Source: Actinomycetes bacterium
GTDB lineage: Bacteria > Actinomycetota > Acidimicrobiia > Acidimicrobiales > SZUA-35
Length of the DNA: 35,350 nucleotides
Direction: 5' to 3'
NCBI GenBank assembly: GCA_024276425.1
Contig: JAJRXF010000162.1
Span: forward strand, 1 to 35,350
The notes beneath the pieces are model-generated. The model saw only the letters and a list, made by a program, of their open reading frames with translations, was not told the origin of the DNA and ran no database searches. The translations under genes and the position numbers were made by a program. Position 1 is the stretch's first letter. The number at the start of each line of letters is the position of its first letter. Of the stretch, positions 2,433-19,279 are shown piece after piece.

Positions 2433-3470
2433 TCACCCAAGCCCTCTACCCCGCGCCCGACTCGCTGAGTCCTCAGCAAGTCGGGCCTGTCGGATTCGAA
2501 CGATCTCAAAGCAAGCGACGGCACCGGCCATGGCGACGTTCAAACTGTTCAATCGGCCGACCAAAGGTATAGATGCAACCGTATCCGCCCGCTCGGCCAC
2601 AAGGCGGGACAGTCCCGATCCTTCGGCCCCAAGAATGAGAGCCACCGCCCGGCCATCGTTGAGCGGCAAGCTGAAGATAGACGAGTCGCCACCGGCGTCA
2701 AGACCAATGGTGTAAACCCCCAACTCTTGCAGACGTAACAGGGCCGCTGGAATTCCCCCAACCAAAGCCATTGGGAGATGCTCAACCGCACCGGCCGCTG
2801 CTTTTGTCACCGTCGGCGAAATATGCACCGACCGATGGCGAGGAAGGACGATCCCTGTCACGCCGGCACATTCGGCCGTACGAAGGATGGCACCCAGATT
2901 CCCTGGATCCGTTACCCCATCAAGAATCAGGAGAAACGCGCCTTTCTTCTTCGCCAACGTCTCAAGGTCGGTCTCGGGCACCGGCTGGGCCCGAGCAATC
3001 ACTCCCTGGTGTGAATCGGTGAGGGCCTCCACGCTCATACGCTTGCGATTGATTGGCCGAAAGGCCACCTTCATCTCGTTGGCCAACTCTCGAATGTCAT
3101 CCAGCACCTCAGCATGGTCCATGTCGTCGATCATCAAGACTTCGTGGATCCTTCGGTTGCCAGCCAAAAGAAGCTCCCTGACGGCCTGCCGTCCTTCGAT
3201 CTGATCGCCACCAAGTCCCTTCTTTTTCGTCTGGCGACGCCGCCCATCTGAACCCGATCCAGCAGCGCCCTTTCGTCGTCGGCGAGAAGGAGGGGGTCCC
3301 TGTTCATTCGGGGACTTAGCACCAGCGTGGCGGGCTCGACCCTTCGTGCCCTTTTTCGGCCCCGCCCGGCCTGAACGACCACTGTTGCGTCCGCCAGCAG
3401 GCCGGTCTTGAGAGCCGCGACGCCCACTTCCTGAGCGACTGCCCGAACCCGATGATTTTGACCGGCTCAT
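2433..3470 (-). CDS. rlmB: 23S rRNA (guanosine 2'-O) methyltransferase, SpoU/RlmB type
   Basis: This 345-aa protein begins with about 85 residues of Ser/Gly/Arg/Lys-rich low complexity. The substrate-binding domain then starts at IEGRQAVRELLL. The SPOUT methyltransferase domain has all three SpoU motifs: DPGNLGAILRTAECAG, ILGAEGSGLS and IPLVGRLNSLNVAMAGAV. Members methylate a ribose in 23S rRNA using S-adenosylmethionine through a trefoil-knot fold. ATG 3470 overlaps the ispF stop as ATGA, implying translational coupling; ispF-rlmB neighbours are common in Actinobacteria. The basic N-terminal extension is common in the actinobacterial branch and may bind RNA. The exact target nucleotide cannot be read from the sequence. 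Confidence 0.93.
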   Translation of the reverse strand: MSRSKSSGSGSRSGSGRRGSQDRPAGGRNSGRSGRAGPKKGTKGRARHAGAKSPNEQGPPPSRRRRKGAAGSGSDGRRRQTKKKGLGGDQIEGRQAVRELLLAGNRRIHEVLMIDDMDHAEVLDDIRELANEMKVAFRPINRKRMSVEALTDSHQGVIARAQPVPETDLETLAKKKGAFLLILDGVTDPGNLGAILRTAECAGVTGIVLPRHRSVHISPTVTKAAAGAVEHLPMALVGGIPAALLRLQELGVYTIGLDAGGDSSIFSLPLNDGRAVALILGAEGSGLSRLVAERADTVASIPLVGRLNSLNVAMAGAVACFEIVRIRQARLAEDSASRARGRGLG

Positions 3471-3970
3471 TTCTCAACCACCAAGGCAACGGCATGACAC
3501 TGAACGCCGCCAGCAAGACCCGCGATTCCCTCGGTACGTTTTCCCTTCATGCTCACGGGTGCTCCTATTGCTGCGGAAAGATTCAGCTCCATCTCGGCCC
3601 GACGAGGCGCGAGCTTCGGAACGTCCAAGATGACTGTGCAATCGACATTTACCACTCTCCAACCCTTCTCAGCCATGAACTCGGAAGCTTGGCGTAGAAG
3701 TGCAATACTGTCGACTCCGGACAGGGAAGGGTCCGTGTCCGGGAACAGCGTCCCAATGTCACCGAGGCCTGCTGCCCCCAGGATGGCATCGATACACGCG
3801 TGGGCTGCCACATCGGCGTCACTATGCCCAACGAGGCCGACCGCCTCGGAGAACTCGACCCCGCCCAACACAAAAACCCGATCGGTGTCCTCAGAGAACG
3901 GGTGGACATCGAAGCCTTGACCAACCCGAAACGGGACCGGCTCTCGCTGGTTGGTGAGGTGTTTAGACAT
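3467..3970 (-). CDS. ispF: 2-C-methyl-D-erythritol 2,4-cyclodiphosphate synthase
   Basis: IspF closes CDP-methylerythritol 2-phosphate to the cyclic diphosphate in the non-mevalonate isoprenoid pathway. The 167-aa length fits the family. Visible motifs are GFDVHPF (metal-binding Asp and His), the HSDADV stretch with the third ligand, and LFPDTDPSLSGVDS. The usual KATTTEG stretch near the end reads KGKRTEG, keeping TEG but losing two threonines. ATG 3970 overlaps the ispD stop by 8 bases and the stop overlaps rlmB as ATGA, so the three genes form one coupled unit. Confidence 0.95.
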   Translation of the reverse strand: MSKHLTNQREPVPFRVGQGFDVHPFSEDTDRVFVLGGVEFSEAVGLVGHSDADVAAHACIDAILGAAGLGDIGTLFPDTDPSLSGVDSIALLRQASEFMAEKGWRVVNVDCTVILDVPKLAPRRAEMELNLSAAIGAPVSMKGKRTEGIAGLAGGVQCHAVALVVEK

Positions 3971-4601
3971 GAGATCCTCGCTGTTCTCTTTCGGTGAGGA
4001 TGACTTCGGCCAGACGCAGATCGGTGGGAACCGTGATCTTCAAGTTCTCAAAATCACCATCAACGTGAACGACTGTCCCTCCAGATCCAGTAACCAGGGC
4101 CGCGTCATCCGTTGCATCGTCACCCATGGCGTGCCCGGCCAACAGGGCAGAAAGGGCGAAACCTTGGGGGGTCTGCACGGCCACCAGTTCGTCGCGGTCA
4201 ACCGGGGAGCCATCATGGCGACGAAGAGTATCGGTGACGGGAACAACAGGCACGGCCCCATCAGCGCTAGACAAGGCGGCTACGACACGGGCCACGACCG
4301 ATGGGGGGGCGAGCGGGCGAGCGCCATCGTGGACCAACACATGTGTCGCCGATTCTGGTAGGGCGTCCAACCCCGCTCGGACAGACTCCGAGCGGGTTTC
4401 TCCGCCCGCCACAACTCGATGGTCGTCCAACCCAAGAGATCCAACGTGTTCCCTCGGTACAACAACCACTGTCCGCCCGGGGCAATTCATTGCCTCAATC
4501 GACCAATCGAGCACGCGTTTGGGCCCAAGTCGATCAAGCTGCTTGAGGCGCCCAAATCGGGTTCCCAAGCCAGCGGCAACAACGATGGCCCAAAGCTCCA
4601 T
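3963..4601 (-). CDS. ispD: 2-C-methyl-D-erythritol 4-phosphate cytidylyltransferase
   Basis: IspD joins CTP and methylerythritol 4-phosphate, two steps before IspF. The 212-aa product opens with the nucleotide-binding VVAAGLGTRFG loop and a downstream PKR. It has the VLVHDGARPL and VAVQTPQGF motifs of the family and a C-terminal VHVDGDFENLKITVPTDL block. All are at the expected spacing. ATG 4601 is the first gene of the minus-strand ispD-ispF-rlmB unit and diverges from crp across a 112-base gap. Confidence 0.95.
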   Translation of the reverse strand: MELWAIVVAAGLGTRFGRLKQLDRLGPKRVLDWSIEAMNCPGRTVVVVPREHVGSLGLDDHRVVAGGETRSESVRAGLDALPESATHVLVHDGARPLAPPSVVARVVAALSSADGAVPVVPVTDTLRRHDGSPVDRDELVAVQTPQGFALSALLAGHAMGDDATDDAALVTGSGGTVVHVDGDFENLKITVPTDLRLAEVILTEREQRGSHV

Positions 4602-8621: not shown

Positions 8622-10145
8622 CTAAGATTCTGAGGCATCGAGAGAAAAACTCCGAAGAATAGCGTGCCCCCTCGCGCCCGCACGGTCCCCCGATGGGGCG
8701 AACCAAGCAGTGCGGAAGCCAAGCTGGCGGGCCGCGTCGAGATTGTCCAACTCGTCATCAACCACCAGGATCGAGGCAGCAGGCTCGGCGGTCACTCGGC
8801 GTAAGACCTCATAAATGGGGGCATCAGGCTTGCGAACACCGACGGTCCCGCTCACGATCCAGGGATCAATGAGCCCATCGAGACTGTGACGAATGATGAG
8901 CTTGTTGGCCCACGCGGTCGAGTCGTTCGTGATGCAAGCCACACGAATGCCCCGGCCCCGTAGCTCTCGCAGAAACTTCACCACCCCGGGGTTGAGCTGA
9001 TGCCGAGACAGATACAGATCGTCCAGTTCATCGGCATTGCCCTCGATGCCGATGGATTTCCAGAACTCCACGGGAGCCAAACGCCCCAAACTCATTGCCC
9101 TGGCCTTGGCCTTGATGGCCTCCTCGCTTGTGGTCGAGCCCATCTCCCGGGCAAACGGAATCAGTATTTCCGCAATGTCAAAACCTTCGCGATAGAGGAC
9201 CCCCATTCCATCAAGGGCGACCACGGCGGGACCATCATCTTCTTCTGCGACGTCTTCAGCTTCTCCAATCACTGATGAAGGCACCGCGACGTTCACTGAT
9301 GAAGGCACCGCGACGTCCGCTAAATATCCATCGCTAGGCGATTGCCGAGCGGAAGGACGGGGCTTTTTGGATGAGCGACTGCGGCGACCAGCCGGTCGTA
9401 GAACTCTCAAGAGATGCCCCAACGCAACCAGGAGAGCGACAATGGCGGTAATCACCGCGAAGCCACGCCACGCCAGGGCTGCGACTGCTGTAGTCGTAGA
9501 ACCTATGAGTACCCGAGTGTCAGACTCGTCAGCCAGGTTGAGAGTCCAGATTCGTGAAACTCCATCGACACCCAATCGAACATCGCCGGTCGGCTCGACC
9601 GTCTCGTCTAGGTGACCGGGCAGATGAACCAGGAAGTCGATCTCGAAACTTGTGGGGTCACCACCATATTGAAGAATCATGTCCTCAACGGTTCTGCCCA
9701 GGGCGGCAACCAGGGCATCGTCGCCCAAGGCCTCAATCCCCGCTGGACGCAACGATCCATCCACCACATATCGGACTCGCGCAAACTCCTTCGTTCTTGT
9801 CAGCTCGAACCCCGAAAACACATCCGCGTCTCCGGTCAACTCCTCAAGTAGAGATGTGAGTTGAGCCGGATTTCCGAACTCCTTTGATGCACCAACTCGA
9901 GTGATCTTGTCCTCACCCAAGGTTGGGGGCGCAATATCCCAGCCAGCATCACTGAGATCCAGCAGCAAGAGTCCGTCCTCGCCCTGCAAGTCCAGGATTC
10001 CAGCTACTGCCTCCTCGTCCAAGGCAAGCTCAATCCCAACGGTGCCCGATCCATCTTCGTTTACCGAAACCTCAACCGTGGTATCGACACGACAACCGGC
10101 CACAACGAGGGCCACAACGCAGAACACGACCAGCCGGAACGGCAT
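8622..10145 (-). CDS. Lipoprotein (LppM-like) domain fused through a membrane helix to a HAD-family domain
   Basis: ATG 10145 gives 507 aa; GTG 10175 is an alternative. A lipoprotein signal ends at LVVAGC (Cys18). Residues about 19-215 form a beta-rich domain beginning VDTTVEVSVNEDGSGTV, typical of LppM-like actinobacterial proteins. A membrane helix follows at about 221-247, then an Arg/Lys-rich and Pro/Ser linker. Residues about 306-500 are a HAD-like fold: motif I LDGMGVLY (Asp312), motif II ITND, motif III K439 (GVRKPD) and motif IV VVDDELD. Motif I has Met314 where phosphatases have the general-acid Asp. By topology, the first domain is outside the cell and the HAD domain inside. It lies 119 bases downstream of clpC. 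The join could in principle be an assembly error, but the frame is continuous. Confidence 0.8.
   Translation of the reverse strand: MPFRLVVFCVVALVVAGCRVDTTVEVSVNEDGSGTVGIELALDEEAVAGILDLQGEDGLLLLDLSDAGWDIAPPTLGEDKITRVGASKEFGNPAQLTSLLEELTGDADVFSGFELTRTKEFARVRYVVDGSLRPAGIEALGDDALVAALGRTVEDMILQYGGDPTSFEIDFLVHLPGHLDETVEPTGDVRLGVDGVSRIWTLNLADESDTRVLIGSTTTAVAALAWRGFAVITAIVALLVALGHLLRVLRPAGRRSRSSKKPRPSARQSPSDGYLADVAVPSSVNVAVPSSVIGEAEDVAEEDDGPAVVALDGMGVLYREGFDIAEILIPFAREMGSTTSEEAIKAKARAMSLGRLAPVEFWKSIGIEGNADELDDLYLSRHQLNPGVVKFLRELRGRGIRVACITNDSTAWANKLIIRHSLDGLIDPWIVSGTVGVRKPDAPIYEVLRRVTAEPAASILVVDDELDNLDAARQLGFRTAWFAPSGDRAGARGHAILRSFSLDASES
9268..9315. repeat. Perfect 24-base tandem duplication in the linker of the lipoprotein-HAD gene
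   Basis: Two identical 24-base copies (9268-9291 and 9292-9315) sit head to tail and keep the frame. They encode two copies of VAVPSSV in the cytoplasmic linker between membrane helix and HAD domain, so the linker length is probably variable between strains. Confidence 0.85.
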
Positions 10146-10264
10146 GGTCGTGTTCTTCAGGACTGGCCAAGGCACTCGCCGAGGTTACCGGACGTCGAAC
10201 CTCAACCCCCGGACACACACACTTGTGTGGACCTCGAAGTCGACTTGCGGGCACGAAACACGAT

Positions 10265-14161: not shown

Positions 14162-15979
14162 ATGATCGCAGACGTTTCGGGAGGGACACCTAGCAAGCAT
14201 GGAGCTGCCAAGGTTGTCGAACTCAGGCATGAGGCGGGGCTGACTGCTGGCGCCACCATGAGGCTGCGAGTCGGCCGGTATCAGTTTGGTCCTGCCGTTG
14301 GCAGCAACGGCGGGTTGCAGGCGGGTACACCGACAACCGTTGGTTTTGAATTGGAAATCCTGGGGCCCGACAATGTCATTATCGTCCCCAAAGAGGCGGA
14401 GATTCGGATCGATGGCCGACCCATTCTGGCACCCGAGGCCGTTACACAAGGCCAGATGATTCAGGCTGGTGCCGACCATTTCAGCATTGGGCCGCGCCCA
14501 AGGTTTGTGGATCTAGCCACGCGTGAGCAGCAACGGATTCAGGTTCGTCGCGTGACGGATCCAGTTCTCGGACCAGCCCTACCCCTTTGGTGGCTCTGGC
14601 TTGCCCTCATTCTGCTTGGCCTTGTTCTGACCGCTTTGGTAGCCAAGGCCTGGATCGTACTTTCACTTGCAGCCCTCCTGGTAGCCGGGGGGACTTGGTG
14701 GCTACAACGCAAGCGAGACAACAAGGAACTCCAAAACCGACAGGCCGAAGTAAACCGCGCCACCGAGCAACTCACCAACGATATTCTCACAGTTCGGGAC
14801 TTGATCGCCCGCCAATGCCGAGTTGCCCATCCATCATCGGCATCCCTCACCAGCGGGATGGGCGCGGAAATCCCGGCACTGCAAGGTTTTTCGGCCACGG
14901 AAGTCCCCGTCCGAACAGGACGCATTCGCGTTGCTTTAGGACTCGGGGATGTCACCTGGGAACCACCGGTAGACCCAAAGGACAACGCTGGCTGGGACTA
15001 CCAAGCCACGGTAGCCAGGTACGCCAGCCTCTCTGCTGTTCCATACCTTTTGGACCTCAATGCCGGGCCCATCGCCATCGTCGGACCACTACCTGCCACC
15101 GCCGCCATCGCCCGCTATCTGACCAAGGCTGCGGCCGCGATCTCCGACCAGGAGTTCAACATCATCTCCTTACACGGGCCAAACAACCGGGTTCCCGATC
15201 AGACCACGACAACAAGTCTCGTACCCAGCGATCACGCCATCATTCAGTGTCCAAGTGTCGATGTTGTCCCCAAGGCATGTTCCACCGTCGTGACGGTAGA
15301 TGCCGCCGGGTACGCCACCGTTATGGCAGCCAACGGCGACGTGCTGGCCACCGACCTGGTACCCCACGGCCTTCCCGAGGAGGGCCAACGTGTCCCAAGC
15401 AGGCTTATTACCCTCGACGATCAACAAAGCCCCGAGGGGAACCAAGGCGCGACCCCGATCCAATCGCTGGCTACCGCCGACGTCACCCGCTTCCCCGGTG
15501 TTCACTTATACACCTGCGATTCGAAGATGGAGTCCAAGGAACTCTTAGCTGGCATCGGCTTGGAACTAGCCGAAAGGCGAGAGCCTGAACAGTTGTCTCT
15601 CACCATCCTCGACTCGGGTGACCGGGGCCTGATTCGGCTTTGGCAACTACCTCACTGTGTTACCTACACCACCATCGACAATGACAACGGCATCAAGATA
15701 GCTCTTGAGAATCTTCAGACAGCCCTAGGTGATCAGCCGGACGCCATGCACGTGATGCTTGCCAGTGAATTCCCTCATCTGATCGAGTTTCTGAACCGAA
15801 GTGGCCGAGATGAACTAGCCCAGCAATTACAAGACTTGGCCTCACAAACAGACCAAGTCCAGCTTGCGCTTGTTGCTTCGGAGACCACTCACTCACCGAG
15901 CGATGGCCCCTCAGTTGCTTCATCTCGAGACATTTCTCGTTCAGTCCATCATCTCCAAAAGGCAGCCCAGGAACGATGA
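14162..15979 (+). CDS. Membrane pseudo-ATPase resembling FtsK/EssC/EccC-type proteins, lacking a Walker A motif
   Basis: The 605-aa product starts at ATG 14162, with AGGGG upstream. Residues about 20-115 look like a degraded FHA-type beta sandwich (RIDGRPI...GADHFSIGP). Two membrane helices lie at about 141-160 and 163-180 (PLWWLWLALILLGLVLTALV). A charged helix and a block around VAHPSSASL then RVALGLGDVTWEPPV follow the order seen after the helices in EssC/EccC. Residues about 440-575 can be laid over an FtsK/SpoIIIE ATPase domain. The Walker A position reads TCDSKMESKELL instead of GTTGSGKSELL. The following TILDSGDRG...WQLPHCV matches the usual VDYKGG...LPH, and the Walker B region reads VMLASEFPHL. 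It overlaps the OmpA-like gene as ATGA. Similarity is by eye; function is unknown. Confidence 0.65.
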   Translation: MIADVSGGTPSKHGAAKVVELRHEAGLTAGATMRLRVGRYQFGPAVGSNGGLQAGTPTTVGFELEILGPDNVIIVPKEAEIRIDGRPILAPEAVTQGQMIQAGADHFSIGPRPRFVDLATREQQRIQVRRVTDPVLGPALPLWWLWLALILLGLVLTALVAKAWIVLSLAALLVAGGTWWLQRKRDNKELQNRQAEVNRATEQLTNDILTVRDLIARQCRVAHPSSASLTSGMGAEIPALQGFSATEVPVRTGRIRVALGLGDVTWEPPVDPKDNAGWDYQATVARYASLSAVPYLLDLNAGPIAIVGPLPATAAIARYLTKAAAAISDQEFNIISLHGPNNRVPDQTTTTSLVPSDHAIIQCPSVDVVPKACSTVVTVDAAGYATVMAANGDVLATDLVPHGLPEEGQRVPSRLITLDDQQSPEGNQGATPIQSLATADVTRFPGVHLYTCDSKMESKELLAGIGLELAERREPEQLSLTILDSGDRGLIRLWQLPHCVTYTTIDNDNGIKIALENLQTALGDQPDAMHVMLASEFPHLIEFLNRSGRDELAQQLQDLASQTDQVQLALVASETTHSPSDGPSVASSRDISRSVHHLQKAAQER

Positions 15980-16947
15980 CATCACCAGAGTGGTCCAACC
16001 ACCCCCTTCCGGCCTTCGTTGCCCCGTCCGCTCCAGACCCCTCACCTCGGCGACCGAAAAAGAAAACCGTAGCCCTCGCCACCCTCGGCACACTTGCGTT
16101 GCTCGGTGCTGGGTTTGCTGCGCTCAACTATGACCCGGACTCCTCAAGCGTCGACAGCGCTCAGGGCGAGACTGCCCAAGTCGCCGGGGCGACCCAGACA
16201 TCGATAACAACACCTATCGCGACGAGCGCCACCTCCGACTCAGGGGACACTGCATCCCCAACCACGTCCCCAACCACTGCATCCCCGACAACCACTGCAG
16301 CACCGACAACCACTGCAGCACCGACAACCACTGCAGCACCGACAACCACGTCCCCGACAACCGAAGACGACCAGGCGGCAACCGCTGAGCCCACAACAGT
16401 CGGAGCCAACGAACAGTCCAAAGAGGTTGACCCAACTCGCCGGGCCGTACTGTCTGGGGGCATTGTCTATCTGCGCGGATCGGTACCAAGCCAGGACATT
16501 GCCGACCAGATCGAAGCCAAGGCAGCAGCCGTTCTGGGCCAAGACAGGGTCGTGGTTGAGTATGTGATCGACCCCAGCGTCGAACTCGCCCCCTCGGCCC
16601 CGCTGGTGGTCGAAGATGTTGTGCTCTTTGCCTTCGGATCGACCGAAATCAACCCGGCGTTCGAACCACTGCTTGATCTAGGCACGGCCCTCATGCAGCA
16701 GAATGAAAACGTGGTCATCACCGTTATTGGCCACACCGACTCGGTCGGTAGCGCGGAGTTCAACCGCCGGCTCGCTAGCGAGCGCACCGCCATGGTGGCC
16801 CAATATTGGTTGGATCGCGGGATCCCCATGGAGCAAATCGAAACGATTAGCAAGGGTGAGGAAGAACCCGTTGCCGATGAGTCAACGCCCGAAGGGGCCC
16901 AAGCCAACCGGCGGGCCGAGTTCATCATCACGGGCCTGTTGGAGTAA
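15976..16947 (+). CDS. Membrane-anchored BON-OmpA family protein
   Basis: This 323-aa protein has a Pro/Lys-rich N-terminus and one membrane helix at about residues 31-50 (TVALATLGTLALLGAGFAAL). A Thr/Pro/Ala-rich stalk with short repeats covers about 75-145. A BON-like segment (about 155-205, VYLRGSVPSQDIADQIE) precedes an OmpA C-terminal domain (about 213-320). The OmpA domain keeps GHTDSVGSAEFNRRLASER and ANRRAEF, the peptidoglycan-contacting stretches. The layout resembles mycobacterial ArfA/OmpATb. ATG 15976 overlaps the stop of the pseudo-ATPase gene by four bases, so the two are almost surely co-translated and may act together at the envelope. Confidence 0.85.
   Translation: MTSPEWSNHPLPAFVAPSAPDPSPRRPKKKTVALATLGTLALLGAGFAALNYDPDSSSVDSAQGETAQVAGATQTSITTPIATSATSDSGDTASPTTSPTTASPTTTAAPTTTAAPTTTAAPTTTSPTTEDDQAATAEPTTVGANEQSKEVDPTRRAVLSGGIVYLRGSVPSQDIADQIEAKAAAVLGQDRVVVEYVIDPSVELAPSAPLVVEDVVLFAFGSTEINPAFEPLLDLGTALMQQNENVVITVIGHTDSVGSAEFNRRLASERTAMVAQYWLDRGIPMEQIETISKGEEEPVADESTPEGAQANRRAEFIITGLLE
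16285..16350. repeat. 18-base tandem repeat in the stalk of the OmpA-like gene
   Basis: Three perfect copies of CCGACAACCACTGCAGCA start at 16285, 16303 and 16321, followed by a partial fourth. They encode PTTTAA units. This is a coding low-complexity stalk, probably length-variable. Confidence 0.9.
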
Positions 16948-16964: not shown

Positions 16965-18362
16965 CTACTCGGGTCGTAGGGTTGGGAACAAAACAACGTC
17001 ACGGATGGTCTGGACGTTGGCCAACAACATGACCAGGCGGTCCATGCCAATGCCAAGGCCACCGGTTGGTGGAAGCCCGTATTCCATTGCCCGAAGATAA
17101 TCCTCGTCAACGACCATGGCCTCGTCGTCGCCCTCGGCTTTTTGTTTGGCCTGGTCCTCGAACCGGGCCCGCTGCTCGGCCGGATCGATTAGCTCGGAGA
17201 ACGCATTGCACAACTCGCGGCCAGCGACAATCCCTTCGAATCGCTCGGTGAAGCCGGGCTTGGATCGGTGATCCCGAGAAAGAGGTGAGACCTCTTTGGG
17301 GTAGTCGGTGACAAACACCGGGTCCCACATCTTTCCCTCAACGGTCCTTTCATAGATCTCCAGAATGATCTTGCCCGGCCCGTAGGACTCCTTCAGCTCG
17401 ACCCCAAACCCCTTCGCCACCGATCCCAGCTCGGCCATGTCCATGTCCAAGGCCACCGACTTACCCGTCTGTTCGGCAATGAGCTCCACCATGGTCGCCC
17501 GACGCCACGGCGCACTAAGATCGAGTTCACGGTCGCCGTAGCCAAGCGTGGTGGTGCCGTGGAGCTCCAAGCAGAGGTATTGGACCAGATCTTCCACCAG
17601 CACCATAATGTCGCTGTAATCGGCATAAGCCTGGTACAGCTCCAACATGGTGAACTCGGGGTTGTGGCGGGTACTCATCCCCTCGTTTCGAAATACTCGG
17701 CCGATCTCGAACACCCGCTCGAACCCACCGGCAACGAGACGCTTGAGATACAGCTCGGGGGCGATCCGAAGGAACAACTCGCTGTCAAGCGCATTGTGGT
17801 GGGTAGAGAACGGTTTAGCCAAAGCCCCACCGGGAATCGGATGCAGGATGGGGGTCTCCACTTCCATGAAACCGCGATCTTCCAGCCAATGCCGGGTGAG
17901 CGACATGATCTTGGATCGCAGAATGAAAGTTTCTCGACTCTCTTGGGTGACCCAGAGGTCGACATAGCGTTGGCGGTAACGCATGTCCGGATCAGCCAGA
18001 CCATGGAACTTGTCGGGGAATTGGCGCTCGGCCTTAGCCAGAACCGTCCACTCCTCAACCCTGATTGAAAGCTCACCCTTGCGAGTTTTCATGACCTCAC
18101 CCGTGACCCCAATCCAGTCACCAAGATGCAAGCTCGTGAACTCGTCGAAGTCTGGTGTCACCTTGGCAGGAGCAAACAATTGAATACGGCCGGTCGAATC
18201 CGCCAGGGTGCCAAAGGCCAACTTGCCTTGAACCCGACGAAGCATCAGCCGTCCAGCGACCGAGGTTTTGGTGCCGGTCTCGGTTCCATCCTCGATCTCT
18301 CCGTACTGAGATCGTAGTGACTCGGTCGAGACCGAGTTGTCGAATCGATACGGAATGGGCAT
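16965..18362 (-). CDS. lysS: Lysyl-tRNA synthetase, class II
   Basis: LysS charges tRNA-Lys with lysine. The 465 aa contain an N-terminal OB-fold anticodon-binding domain ([17 protein letters not shown]) and a class II catalytic core. Motif 2 is [20 protein letters not shown] and motif 3 is [13 protein letters not shown]. Its ATG (18360-18362) shares a base with the stop of the upstream scramblase-like gene (TAATG), so the two are coupled. It is the last gene of the minus-strand run and converges with the OmpA-like gene over 17 bases. Confidence 0.97.
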
Positions 18363-19279
18363 TAACTCAAGCCTCGACTGTCTTGTTTGAGGGCCGTGTC
18401 GATGCTGAGTGCCGAGGCGACAACCATGCTTCGAAGTGGCTCAGTAAGGGGGGCATGGACCTTGACCACATAGTTGTCAGCCGTGGTAAACATGGTCTTG
18501 GCCAGACCCTCCCACGTCTTGGTGATGGAGGCCACTTCATTTCCGGCCTGATCCTGAATCGAGAAGTTCCAGGCTCGCCAGTTCTGGGCGTTGATCGATC
18601 CAATCTCTTCTCCATTGACCATGAAGCCAAATCGGATCTTGCCAATCATATTCTTCTGCACCACCTGACCAATGACTCCCCCGGTGGGCCCGGACACCTC
18701 AAACTTTGACTTAAAGAACTTGGCTGGCCGTCGAACATGCAACACGCGGCGACCGTTGAGATCGACAATTTCGAACTGGTGGGTCAGGAACTGATCGACG
18801 TCGCCCACAACCCGGACGAACTTCTTGAACGCACTCTGACCGATTTGGCGCACTCCACCGATCTGGACGCCAGCCGCGTTGTAGATGGCAAACTCGGTGT
18901 TGACCTCAATCAACTTGGCCTTCTGATTGACGACGAGAATCGGCTCGCTCAACAAATCAAAGCCGGCCTCCTGACCAGCACCAGGGCCAGCCTTGGCTGC
19001 CTGAGCCTGGACTCTTTCCGGTTCCACGTTGCCGACCGGAACATAACCGGTCTGATCAGTGGCCACCGGCGGCGGTGGACTGGACTGCGGCAATGGAGTC
19101 GACTGTTGCGCTGGCTGAACCGGTGCAGCATTCTCCAGCCGATCCTCTTGAACCAACCCGTCGGTCGAAACCGAAGAAGTCCATGCTGTGCCGTCCCACC
19201 AACGGTGCTCAAACCGCCCGACGGGGTCGGCATACCAACCGGGGGGTGTTGCCTGGGGATTCGTTGGAGTATCGCTCAC
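18362..19279 (-). CDS. DUF2510 plus scramblase/LURP-one-like protein
   Basis: The 305-aa product opens with a DUF2510 block ([19 protein letters not shown]), then a Pro/Gln-rich linker. From about residue 107 it has a beta-barrel-type domain with [38 protein letters not shown] and [19 protein letters not shown]. This repeated strand pattern and the buried-helix-like C-terminus (about 280-298) are those of the phospholipid scramblase/LURP-one (tubby-like) superfamily. The biochemical role in bacteria is unsettled; lipid or membrane binding is a guess. Its ATG overlaps the folK stop as ATGA, and its stop overlaps the lysS start. Confidence 0.8.

What the first reader, a model, noticed from the sequence alone, without database searches (positions are those of the whole stretch)
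14162..16947. Two-gene operon of an FtsK/EssC-like pseudo-ATPase and a BON-OmpA envelope protein
The first protein keeps the FHA-like, twin-helix and post-helix layout of EssC/EccC-type secretion ATPases, and its C-terminal part can be aligned by eye with an FtsK/SpoIIIE domain. At the Walker A position it reads TCDSKMESKELL, and Walker B is degraded (VMLASEF). It overlaps an OmpA-type protein by four bases. No ATPase-competent partner or WXG100 gene is nearby. This looks like a repurposed, nucleotide-free scaffold tied to a peptidoglycan-binding protein.
Basis: partly seen in the sequence, partly recalled or inferred. Interest (0 to 1): 0.72.

Follow-up and report, generated by a model that had tools for sequence, protein, structure and literature searches.

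The report
ATP-dead secretion-ATPase relative with wall anchor
In one family of Acidimicrobiia-type bacteria, a cut-down relative of the type VII secretion motor that has lost its working ATP domains is encoded together with a peptidoglycan-binding-type protein, probably as a wall-anchored, non-motor part of a secretion-like machine whose motor is encoded elsewhere in the genome.

Summary
The two genes and their four-base overlap are real. Protein 1 is an EssC/EccC-type paralogue ordered FHA, two membrane helices, D0 (DUF), D2; D1 and D3 are absent. Missing Walker A is a lineage trait: 10 of 10 aligned members (window included) lack it, and D2 had already lost it in 12 of 12 nearest full-length ATPases. 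Protein 2 has a clear OmpA domain and a sub-threshold BON match. An OmpA gene adjoins 6 of 10 assessable members and 9 of 34 examined shorter FHA-D0 paralogues. 'No ATPase-competent partner' holds only locally: the genome encodes an EccC-like ATPase with intact D1 and no detectable FHA. That type occurs in 8 of 12 pseudo-ATPase genomes and 0 of 27 others. A gene near it belongs to a family detected in 7 of 39 genomes, all with that ATPase. Best reading: an ATP-dead, peptidoglycan-tethered subunit of a lineage-specific T7SS-like machine. A stand-alone scaffold is a close rival, since D0-OmpA pairs occur without that motor. Architecture and ancestry are well supported; partnership and function are inferred.

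The parts
14162..15979 (+). pseudo-ATPase gene, 605 aa: FHA - TM - TM - D0 - D2
   Evidence: relatives
14204..14503 (+). FHA domain, residues 15-114; the 'GR' of phosphothreonine-binding FHA domains (recalled) reads FGP, invariant in 10 of 10 aligned members
   Evidence: fold match Z 11.4; alignments
14576..14704 (+). two membrane helices, residues 139-160 and 163-181, by inspection and AF2 helices
14909..15376 (+). D0 (DUF) degenerate RecA-like domain, about residues 250-405
   Evidence: family D0 profile hits full-length ATPases L048/L049/L053 at 6.7e-31 to 1.9e-20, but L038 only at E 2.3, L038 at 2.3e-28 with the iterated profile; fold: best 9qks_H E 5.2e-4, Z about 8
15497..15901 (+). D2-type FtsK/EssC domain, residues 446-580, no nucleotide site
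   Evidence: profile picks D2 not D1 in L048/L049/L053 and neither in L038; fold Z 13.9 to EssC 969-1227
15512..15547 (+). former Walker A position, TCDSKMESKELL; least conserved of the seven stretches compared (mean pairwise identity 0.21)
15608..15658 (+). conserved LDSGDRGLIRLWQLPHC motif (residues 481-506 mean pairwise identity 0.59)
15752..15772 (+). Walker B position VMLASEF; no DE/DD pair in any of 10 aligned members
15976..15979 (+). ATGA stop/start overlap
   Evidence: a 4-base overlap recurs in L043, L072, L073, L076, L077
15976..16947 (+). OmpA-type envelope protein, 323 aa: N-terminal TM (about residues 31-50, by inspection), Thr/Pro-rich linker, BON-like, OmpA
16450..16557 (+). 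BON-like stretch, residues 159-194, below the curated cut-off
   Evidence: E 5e-4, 20.7 bits against 27; the C16 paralogue gives the same weak match (21.1 bits)
16624..16911 (+). OmpA domain, residues 217-312, with GHTD (252-255) and R270 aligned to Rv0899 and others

Best explanation
Protein 1 is an ATP-dead paralogue of the EssC/EccC motor. Shown by sequence and model: FHA, membrane hairpin, stalk helix and D0 are kept, D1 and D3 are gone, and D2 is kept without a nucleotide site. Inferred: through its D0, stalk and D2 surfaces it joins an EssC-like ring at the membrane as a structural or regulatory subunit. The motor is the separate ATPase without detectable FHA (own genome contig C139, intact D1). 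The co-encoded OmpA protein, inserted in the membrane by its N-terminal helix with its OmpA domain outside, fixes the assembly to peptidoglycan. The FHA domain lacks the phosphothreonine-binding signature (recalled), so it would dock constitutively. The assembly would be a lineage-specific T7SS-like machine in which FHA docking is carried by a non-motor subunit.
For: Domain identity: profiles and folds. Monophyletic pseudo-ATPase clade over four genera, D0-tree support 0.978. dN below dS (75). ATPases without detectable FHA in 8 of 12 pseudo-ATPase genomes and 0 of 27 others (66, 67; Fisher 8e-6 by genome, 0.024 by genus, 87). They form one clade (split support 1.000, 59), and no other of 397 sampled genomes of the order scored above 182.5 bits with their profile. 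A neighbour-gene family of that ATPase was detected in 7 of 39 genomes, all carrying the ATPase. OmpA adjacent in 6 of 10 assessable loci. DUF domains reported as degenerate ATPases that may have retained hexamerisation (PMC11154593, abstract and passages).
Against: Pseudo-ATPase and motor genes are not linked. Four pseudo-ATPase genomes (G038, G021, G022, G023; 81-93% complete) lack the FHA-less ATPase. The association is three genera deep and partly shared ancestry. Seven of the eight ATPase hits helped build the profile; only G007 is independent. The first D0 and D2 profiles do not hit the own genome's ATPase L038 (E 2.3 and above). OmpA is not adjacent in G005, G006, G022, G023, exists at the same locus without an FHA gene in G014 and G015 (78), and pairs with D0-only forms that have no such motor, even in another family (G305). 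No WXG100 by PF06013 in the own genome (19). No physical interaction was tested; the model is low-confidence overall.
Confidence: 0.42

Rival explanations
1. Stand-alone envelope scaffold: FHA-TM-D0(-D2) plus OmpA form a wall-anchored membrane platform unrelated to secretion or to the FHA-less ATPase. This is closest to the first reader's idea.
For: Shorter FHA-D0 paralogues without D2 were examined at 34 loci in 27 of the 39 genomes; 9 of 34 carry an adjacent OmpA gene, including one in the own genome (L051). A D0 protein without P-loop, FHA or D2 match lies directly behind an OmpA gene in G305 of another family. Pseudo-ATPase without the FHA-less ATPase in G038, G021, G022, G023. No WXG100 in the own genome.
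Against: Does not explain why the FHA-less ATPase was found only in pseudo-ATPase genomes nor why a D2 fold is kept.
Confidence: 0.38
2. Regulatory or assembly factor of another membrane machine (for example FtsK and the divisome), with OmpA linkage incidental.
For: An FtsK-like gene is present in the genome, and the D2 part also matches FtsK folds (Z 10.6-11.5).
Against: EssC/EccC D2 matches rank first, and the FHA-TM-D0 part follows EssC-type ATPases. OmpA linkage recurs in two chromosomal contexts.
Confidence: 0.1
3. Decaying remnant of an EssC gene, or a sequence or assembly error.
For: The window and G036 forms lack part of the D2 end kept by the other aligned members. A remnant (FHA fragment plus OmpA tail) exists in G000 C195.
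Against: Open frames in all 10 aligned members, monophyly over four genera, dN/dS 0.04-0.54 in five pairs by region (dS saturated; two regions undefined), strongly conserved motif.
Confidence: 0.03

Closest known systems
EssC/TsbC (T7SSb) and TsdC/TseC/TsfC ATPases
   Same: FHA at the N terminus, membrane hairpin, D0, D2 fold; EssC FHA also lacks the phosphothreonine site (PMC11217815, passages)
   Different: D1 and D3 absent; one FHA, against two in EssC; linked to OmpA; whole-protein score 29.7 against a cut-off of 778.4
Split EccCa/EccCb of ESX systems
   Same: EccC functions divided over two chains (recalled; family names TIGR03924/TIGR03925)
   Different: There D1 stays with the membrane part and D2-D3 are soluble (recalled); here the membrane FHA-D0-D2 chain has no motor and the motor chain has its own membrane part, D0, D1, D2 and D3
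TsfJ/TseJ of T7SSf/T7SSe
   Same: A separate FHA-bearing subunit in a T7SS; TsfJ has two predicted TM helices (PMC11217815, passages)
   Different: DUF6382 plus FHA; no D0 or D2 mentioned in the passages seen
EccC5 DUF domain (8rin)
   Same: Degenerate ATPase-fold domain below the membrane, no nucleotide (PMC11154593, abstract and passages)
   Different: Part of a full motor
OmpATb/ArfA Rv0899 (2l26, 2lbt) and PAL/YiaD
   Same: OmpA domain with aligned GxTD and R; TM-BON-OmpA order of Rv0899 recalled
   Different: BON only weak here; long Thr/Pro linker; genomic partner is the pseudo-ATPase

Membership tests
EssC/EccC T7SS ATPase | N-terminal FHA (EssC type) | tested here: met
   fold Z 11.4 over about 15-114; family FHA profile hits L048 at 1.9e-17
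EssC/EccC T7SS ATPase | membrane hairpin followed by D0/DUF | tested here: met
   D0 profile hits three of four full-length ATPases, best 6.7e-31; fold best match 9qks_H, weak
EssC/EccC T7SS ATPase | D1 with intact Walker A and B | tested here: not met
   no GxxxxGK[ST] in any of 10 aligned members; C-terminal profile matches D2, not D1
EssC/EccC T7SS ATPase | D2 domain | tested here: met
   nucleotide site absent
EssC/EccC T7SS ATPase | D3 domain | tested here: not met
   protein ends after D2
EssC/EccC T7SS ATPase | NCBIfam whole-protein cut-off | tested here: not met
   29.7 against 778.4 bits
Type VII secretion system | WXG100 protein in the genome | tested here: inconclusive
   PF06013 0 matches in own genome, 18 of 39 family genomes match; a helical N-terminus near the FHA-less ATPase looks WXG/EspC-like by eye only; three of its relatives scanned (one without its N-terminus) gave no such Pfam match
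Type VII secretion system | catalytically intact-looking EccC/EssC in the genome | tested here: met
   C139, 1274 aa, GTTGSGKS at 547; activity not tested
Type VII secretion system (T7SSb) | EssB/YukC | tested here: not met
   PF10140 in 0 of 39 genomes
OmpA-like peptidoglycan-binding proteins | OmpA domain over curated cut-off | tested here: met
   PF00691 68.7 against 27.2 bits
OmpA-like peptidoglycan-binding proteins | D and R of the diaminopimelate site (recalled) | tested here: met
   D255 and R270 align with Rv0899, PA0833, YiaD; binding itself not tested
BON domain | Pfam BON over cut-off | tested here: inconclusive
   20.7 against 27 bits

The most novel reading that the evidence does not exclude
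A T7SS-like subtype of one Acidimicrobiia family in which the EssC motor has been divided by duplication. A motor without detectable FHA and an FHA-bearing, ATP-dead paralogue build one mixed ring, wall-anchored by a dedicated OmpA subunit, and serve a lineage-specific protein with a helical-hairpin N-terminus instead of canonical WXG100.
Probability: 0.28. Interest if true: 0.72.

Novelty: new variant of a known kind. Interest (0 to 1): 0.5.

Why it matters
If true, it would show that an EssC-type ring can mix motor and non-motor chains and be tied to peptidoglycan by an OmpA partner. T7SS models do not, to my knowledge (recalled), include such an anchor. It also offers a natural separation of FHA/D0/D2 functions from ATP hydrolysis, which makes the roles of these domains testable one by one.

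Tried and rejected
Rejected: local decay or sequence error. Rejected: a P-loop lost in this protein itself; D2 of the nearest full-length ATPases has already lost it. Rejected: one common operon for motor and pseudo-ATPase; they are unlinked. Followed and dropped: OmpA relatives 7-9 kb from FHA-D0 genes in several genomes turned out, in the loci listed, to sit elsewhere in a conserved region, often beside a gene that looks UvrD/PcrA-like by eye, not in one operon. Pfam reports neither FHA nor FtsK in the window protein; I put this down to divergence, since NCBIfam and folds do. Alignment A2 was set aside because L061 is cut by a contig end. Paper searches for T7SS with Acidimicrobi*, 'pseudoATPase' with T7SS, 'OmpA domain' with T7SS and Actinobacteria, and OmpA with 'FHA domain' and Acidimicrobiia gave 3, 1, 1 and 0 listings; I read none of those papers, and none looked to be about this pair from titles and abstract openings.

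Limits: loci are MAG contigs and several result lists were capped (as marked in those calls, for example 29, 38 and 53). The ATPases put in the tree are a sample: frames of about 1130-1300 aa from the list, plus others; four fetched loci (L162, L163, L168, L169) gave no frame by my P-loop pattern and are not in the tree. Gene starts in scripts are the first start codon, so small gaps are approximate. Adjacency counts leave out two pseudo-ATPase genes cut by contig ends (L041, L052), two fragments (L086, L098), and FHA-D0 loci not examined for this count (G022:C475, which does have an OmpA hit about 220 bases away on the same strand; G029:C284; G031:C3; G001:C325; G002:C14; G030:C10). Genomes share ancestry, so counts by genome overstate independence.
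Full report
What is there. The window is contig C145 of a 3.95 Mb draft genome (96.1% complete). Of eight named loci with relatives, seven are Acidimicrobiia/Acidimicrobiales MAGs and one is titled Actinomycetes bacterium. Two + strand genes, 14162-15979 (605 aa) and 15976-16947 (323 aa), overlap by ATGA. They sit between a polyprenyl synthetase gene and a class II (lysyl-type) tRNA synthetase gene. G+C is even across the window (0.56-0.61), so there is no sign of a foreign island.

Anatomy of protein 1. Pfam reports nothing over its cut-offs. NCBIfam gives EssC TIGR03928 at E 1.3e-7 over 461-523, and all 10 aligned members, window included, hit that model at E <= 0.01. A profile of the 10 finds only EssC/EccC among solved sequences at E <= 0.01 (5fv0, 4lya, about 8e-5). 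An AF2 model from eight sequences is poor overall (pLDDT 62.8, pTM 0.34), with 461-560 at 75-85. Its best structural matches are EssC/EccC D2 domains over 429-605 (5fv0 Z 13.9, 4lya 12.7, EccCb1-D2 9jv8 12.7) and FHA domains over about 15-114 (Z up to 11.4). A separate model of 184-410 (pLDDT 64.5, pTM 0.54) gives the T7SSb chain with DUF, 9qks_H, as the only Foldseek hit under 1e-3, with ESX chains next; Z is about 8 (best 8.8, to the last EssC ATPase domain), so this is weak on its own. By sequence the D0 assignment is firmer: the family D0 profile hits the post-membrane region of the full-length ATPases L048, L049 and L053 at 6.7e-31, 6.8e-26 and 1.9e-20, with the best of 1000 shuffled copies at 12.2 bits; the own genome's ATPase L038 is not hit (E 2.3) until the profile is iterated (2.3e-28). 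The C-terminal profile picks D2, not D1, in L049, L048 and L053 (54.8 against 1.4, 46.5 against 3.7, 29.3 against 4.0 bits) and hits neither in L038.

The missing ATP site. None of the 10 aligned members has GxxxxGK[ST]. The former Walker A stretch is the least conserved of seven stretches compared (mean pairwise identity 0.21), whereas the following strand-turn (LDSGDRxLIRLxQLPHC) is the most conserved (0.59). The Walker B position has no DE or DD pair in any of the 10. In the 12 nearest full-length ATPases (L038, L048, L049, L053, L152-L158, L166) D1 reads GTTGxGKS but D2 has no P-loop (for example YGIDAATTATT, IGSDGNEVEATT), while L160, L164, L165 and L167 keep GxGGxGKT and L170 GGPRSGKS in D2. 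So the protein did not lose its Walker A in place: it carries an already dead D2, and D1 and D3 are absent. The FHA domain reads FGP, invariant in 10 of 10, where phosphothreonine-binding FHA domains have GR (motif recalled). EssC FHA domains also lack that site and bind the EssB pseudokinase (PMC11217815, passages), but EssB/YukC was found in 0 of 39 genomes here.

Evolution. In a D0 tree the pseudo-ATPases of 12 genomes form one clade (support 0.978) that follows genera g9, g11, g1 and g4. Codon comparisons of five pairs give dN below dS (ratios 0.04-0.54 by region; dS saturated, two undefined). Shorter FHA-D0 paralogues without D2 were examined at 34 loci in 27 of the 39 genomes of the family. 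I examined the seven listed outside matches with frames under 1000 aa: none has a D2 match. L178, L180 and L181 carry a D1 P-loop (the last two cut by stretch or contig ends), L179 and L182 are cut, and L176 (G305) and L177 (G061) are short D0 proteins without P-loop. In G305 an OmpA gene (L176 1592-2536) directly precedes the D0 gene (2536-4431) on the same strand. The D2-bearing short form was thus seen only inside the family, but a D0-OmpA pair is not confined to it.

The OmpA partner. Protein 2 has an N-terminal membrane helix, a Thr/Pro-rich linker, a sub-threshold BON match and an OmpA domain (68.7 bits against a cut-off of 27.2), with GHTD and R270 aligned to Rv0899, PA0833 and YiaD. 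An OmpA gene on the same strand adjoins 6 of 10 assessable pseudo-ATPase genes (12 known, 2 cut by contig ends) and 9 of 34 examined FHA-D0 genes; a four-base overlap is seen in six loci (window, L043, L072, L073, L076, L077). In G036 the order is reversed. In G005, G006, G022 and G023 no OmpA gene adjoins. In G014 and G015 the OmpA gene sits between the same flanking genes without an FHA gene. The link is recurrent but not obligate.

A motor elsewhere. PF01580 finds an FtsK-like gene and a second ORF of 1274 aa in the own genome, with D1 GTTGSGKS and D3 GQPGSGRT. Similar ATPases of 1134-1279 aa in seven other genomes form one clade with it (split support 1.000), and none of the eight gives an FHA match under E 1, whereas L048, L049 and L166 do (L053 does not). 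A profile of their N-terminal half scores 440-655 bits in G000, G036, G004-G008 and G037 and at most 182.5 bits in the other 31 genomes; at order level the best other score is also 182.5 bits. Seven of these eight helped build the profile; G007 is independent. All eight carry the pseudo-ATPase; four more pseudo-ATPase genomes (G038, G021, G022, G023) do not have this ATPase. Fisher's test gives 8e-6 by genome and 0.024 by genus; relatedness makes the second figure the fairer one. Near this ATPase lies a gene whose N-terminal 75 residues (query from G006) were found in 7 of 39 genomes at E <= 0.001, all with this ATPase; G007 is the ATPase genome without it. It lies within about 2.2 kb of the ATPase in six of the seven, counting the C-terminal parts at contig starts in G000 and G005; in G037 it is on another contig. 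In G036 only the N-terminal part is similar. The N-terminus looks like a WXG100/EspC hairpin by eye only; Pfam reported none for the relatives scanned, and PF06013 finds none in the own genome.

Mechanism. Shown: domain order, absence of D1, D3 and any P-loop, conservation, and genomic association with OmpA. Inferred: the pseudo-ATPase is a membrane ring subunit using D0 and D2 as protein-protein surfaces, the OmpA protein ties it to peptidoglycan, and the FHA-less ATPase is the motor of the same assembly. [quoted passage not shown] The close rival is a stand-alone wall-anchored scaffold, favoured by the OmpA-paired D0-only forms, by G305, and by the four genomes without the motor.

Against known kinds. 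It is not an EssC/EccC: D1, D3 and the curated score were tested and not met. It is a derived, ATP-dead paralogue of that family, hence a new variant of a known kind. The nearest analogies are the EccCa/EccCb division (recalled) and the separate FHA subunits TseJ/TsfJ (PMC11217815, passages); as far as I saw neither has this architecture.

Noticed in passing
L038 3-1244 (own genome C139); L155 226-2094; L157 647-2509; L154 3-1739; L158 3-869; L152 9262-10260: Protein family, up to about 620 aa, near the FHA-less ATPase; the N-terminal stretch was found in 7 of 39 family genomes, all with that ATPase. Helical N-terminus WXG/EspC-like by eye, weak EF-hand-like matches; possible substrate.
   Followed up: partly
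L086 2833-3420 (own genome C195): FHA fragment of 155 aa followed by about 30 residues of an OmpA C-terminus: remnant of a further FHA-OmpA locus.
   Followed up: partly
L051 5349-7654 (own genome C16): Second intact FHA-D0 (450 aa) plus BON-like/OmpA pair in the same genome, downstream of a methyladenine glycosylase gene; a similar-looking upstream gene precedes FHA-D0 genes in several other family genomes (by eye).
   Followed up: partly
L176 1592-4431 (G305, another family): OmpA gene directly followed by a 631-aa D0 protein without P-loop, FHA or D2 match: the pair exists outside the window's family.
   Followed up: partly
window 8622-10175, strand -: 517-aa ORF with a HAD hydrolase at its C-terminus behind a lipoprotein- or membrane-like N-terminal half (by eye); conserved in G036 and G037 (65% and 53%).
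   Followed up: partly
L045, L047, L050, directly upstream of the pseudo-ATPase: Membrane-rich-looking protein of about 720-830 aa ending in ATWAEF-like motifs, upstream of the pseudo-ATPase in three genomes (G006, G022, G023) that lack the adjacent OmpA gene.
   Followed up: no
window 18362-19279, strand -: 305-aa protein: DUF2510 plus Scramblase/LURP-like domain, next to lysS in both g1 genomes.
   Followed up: partly
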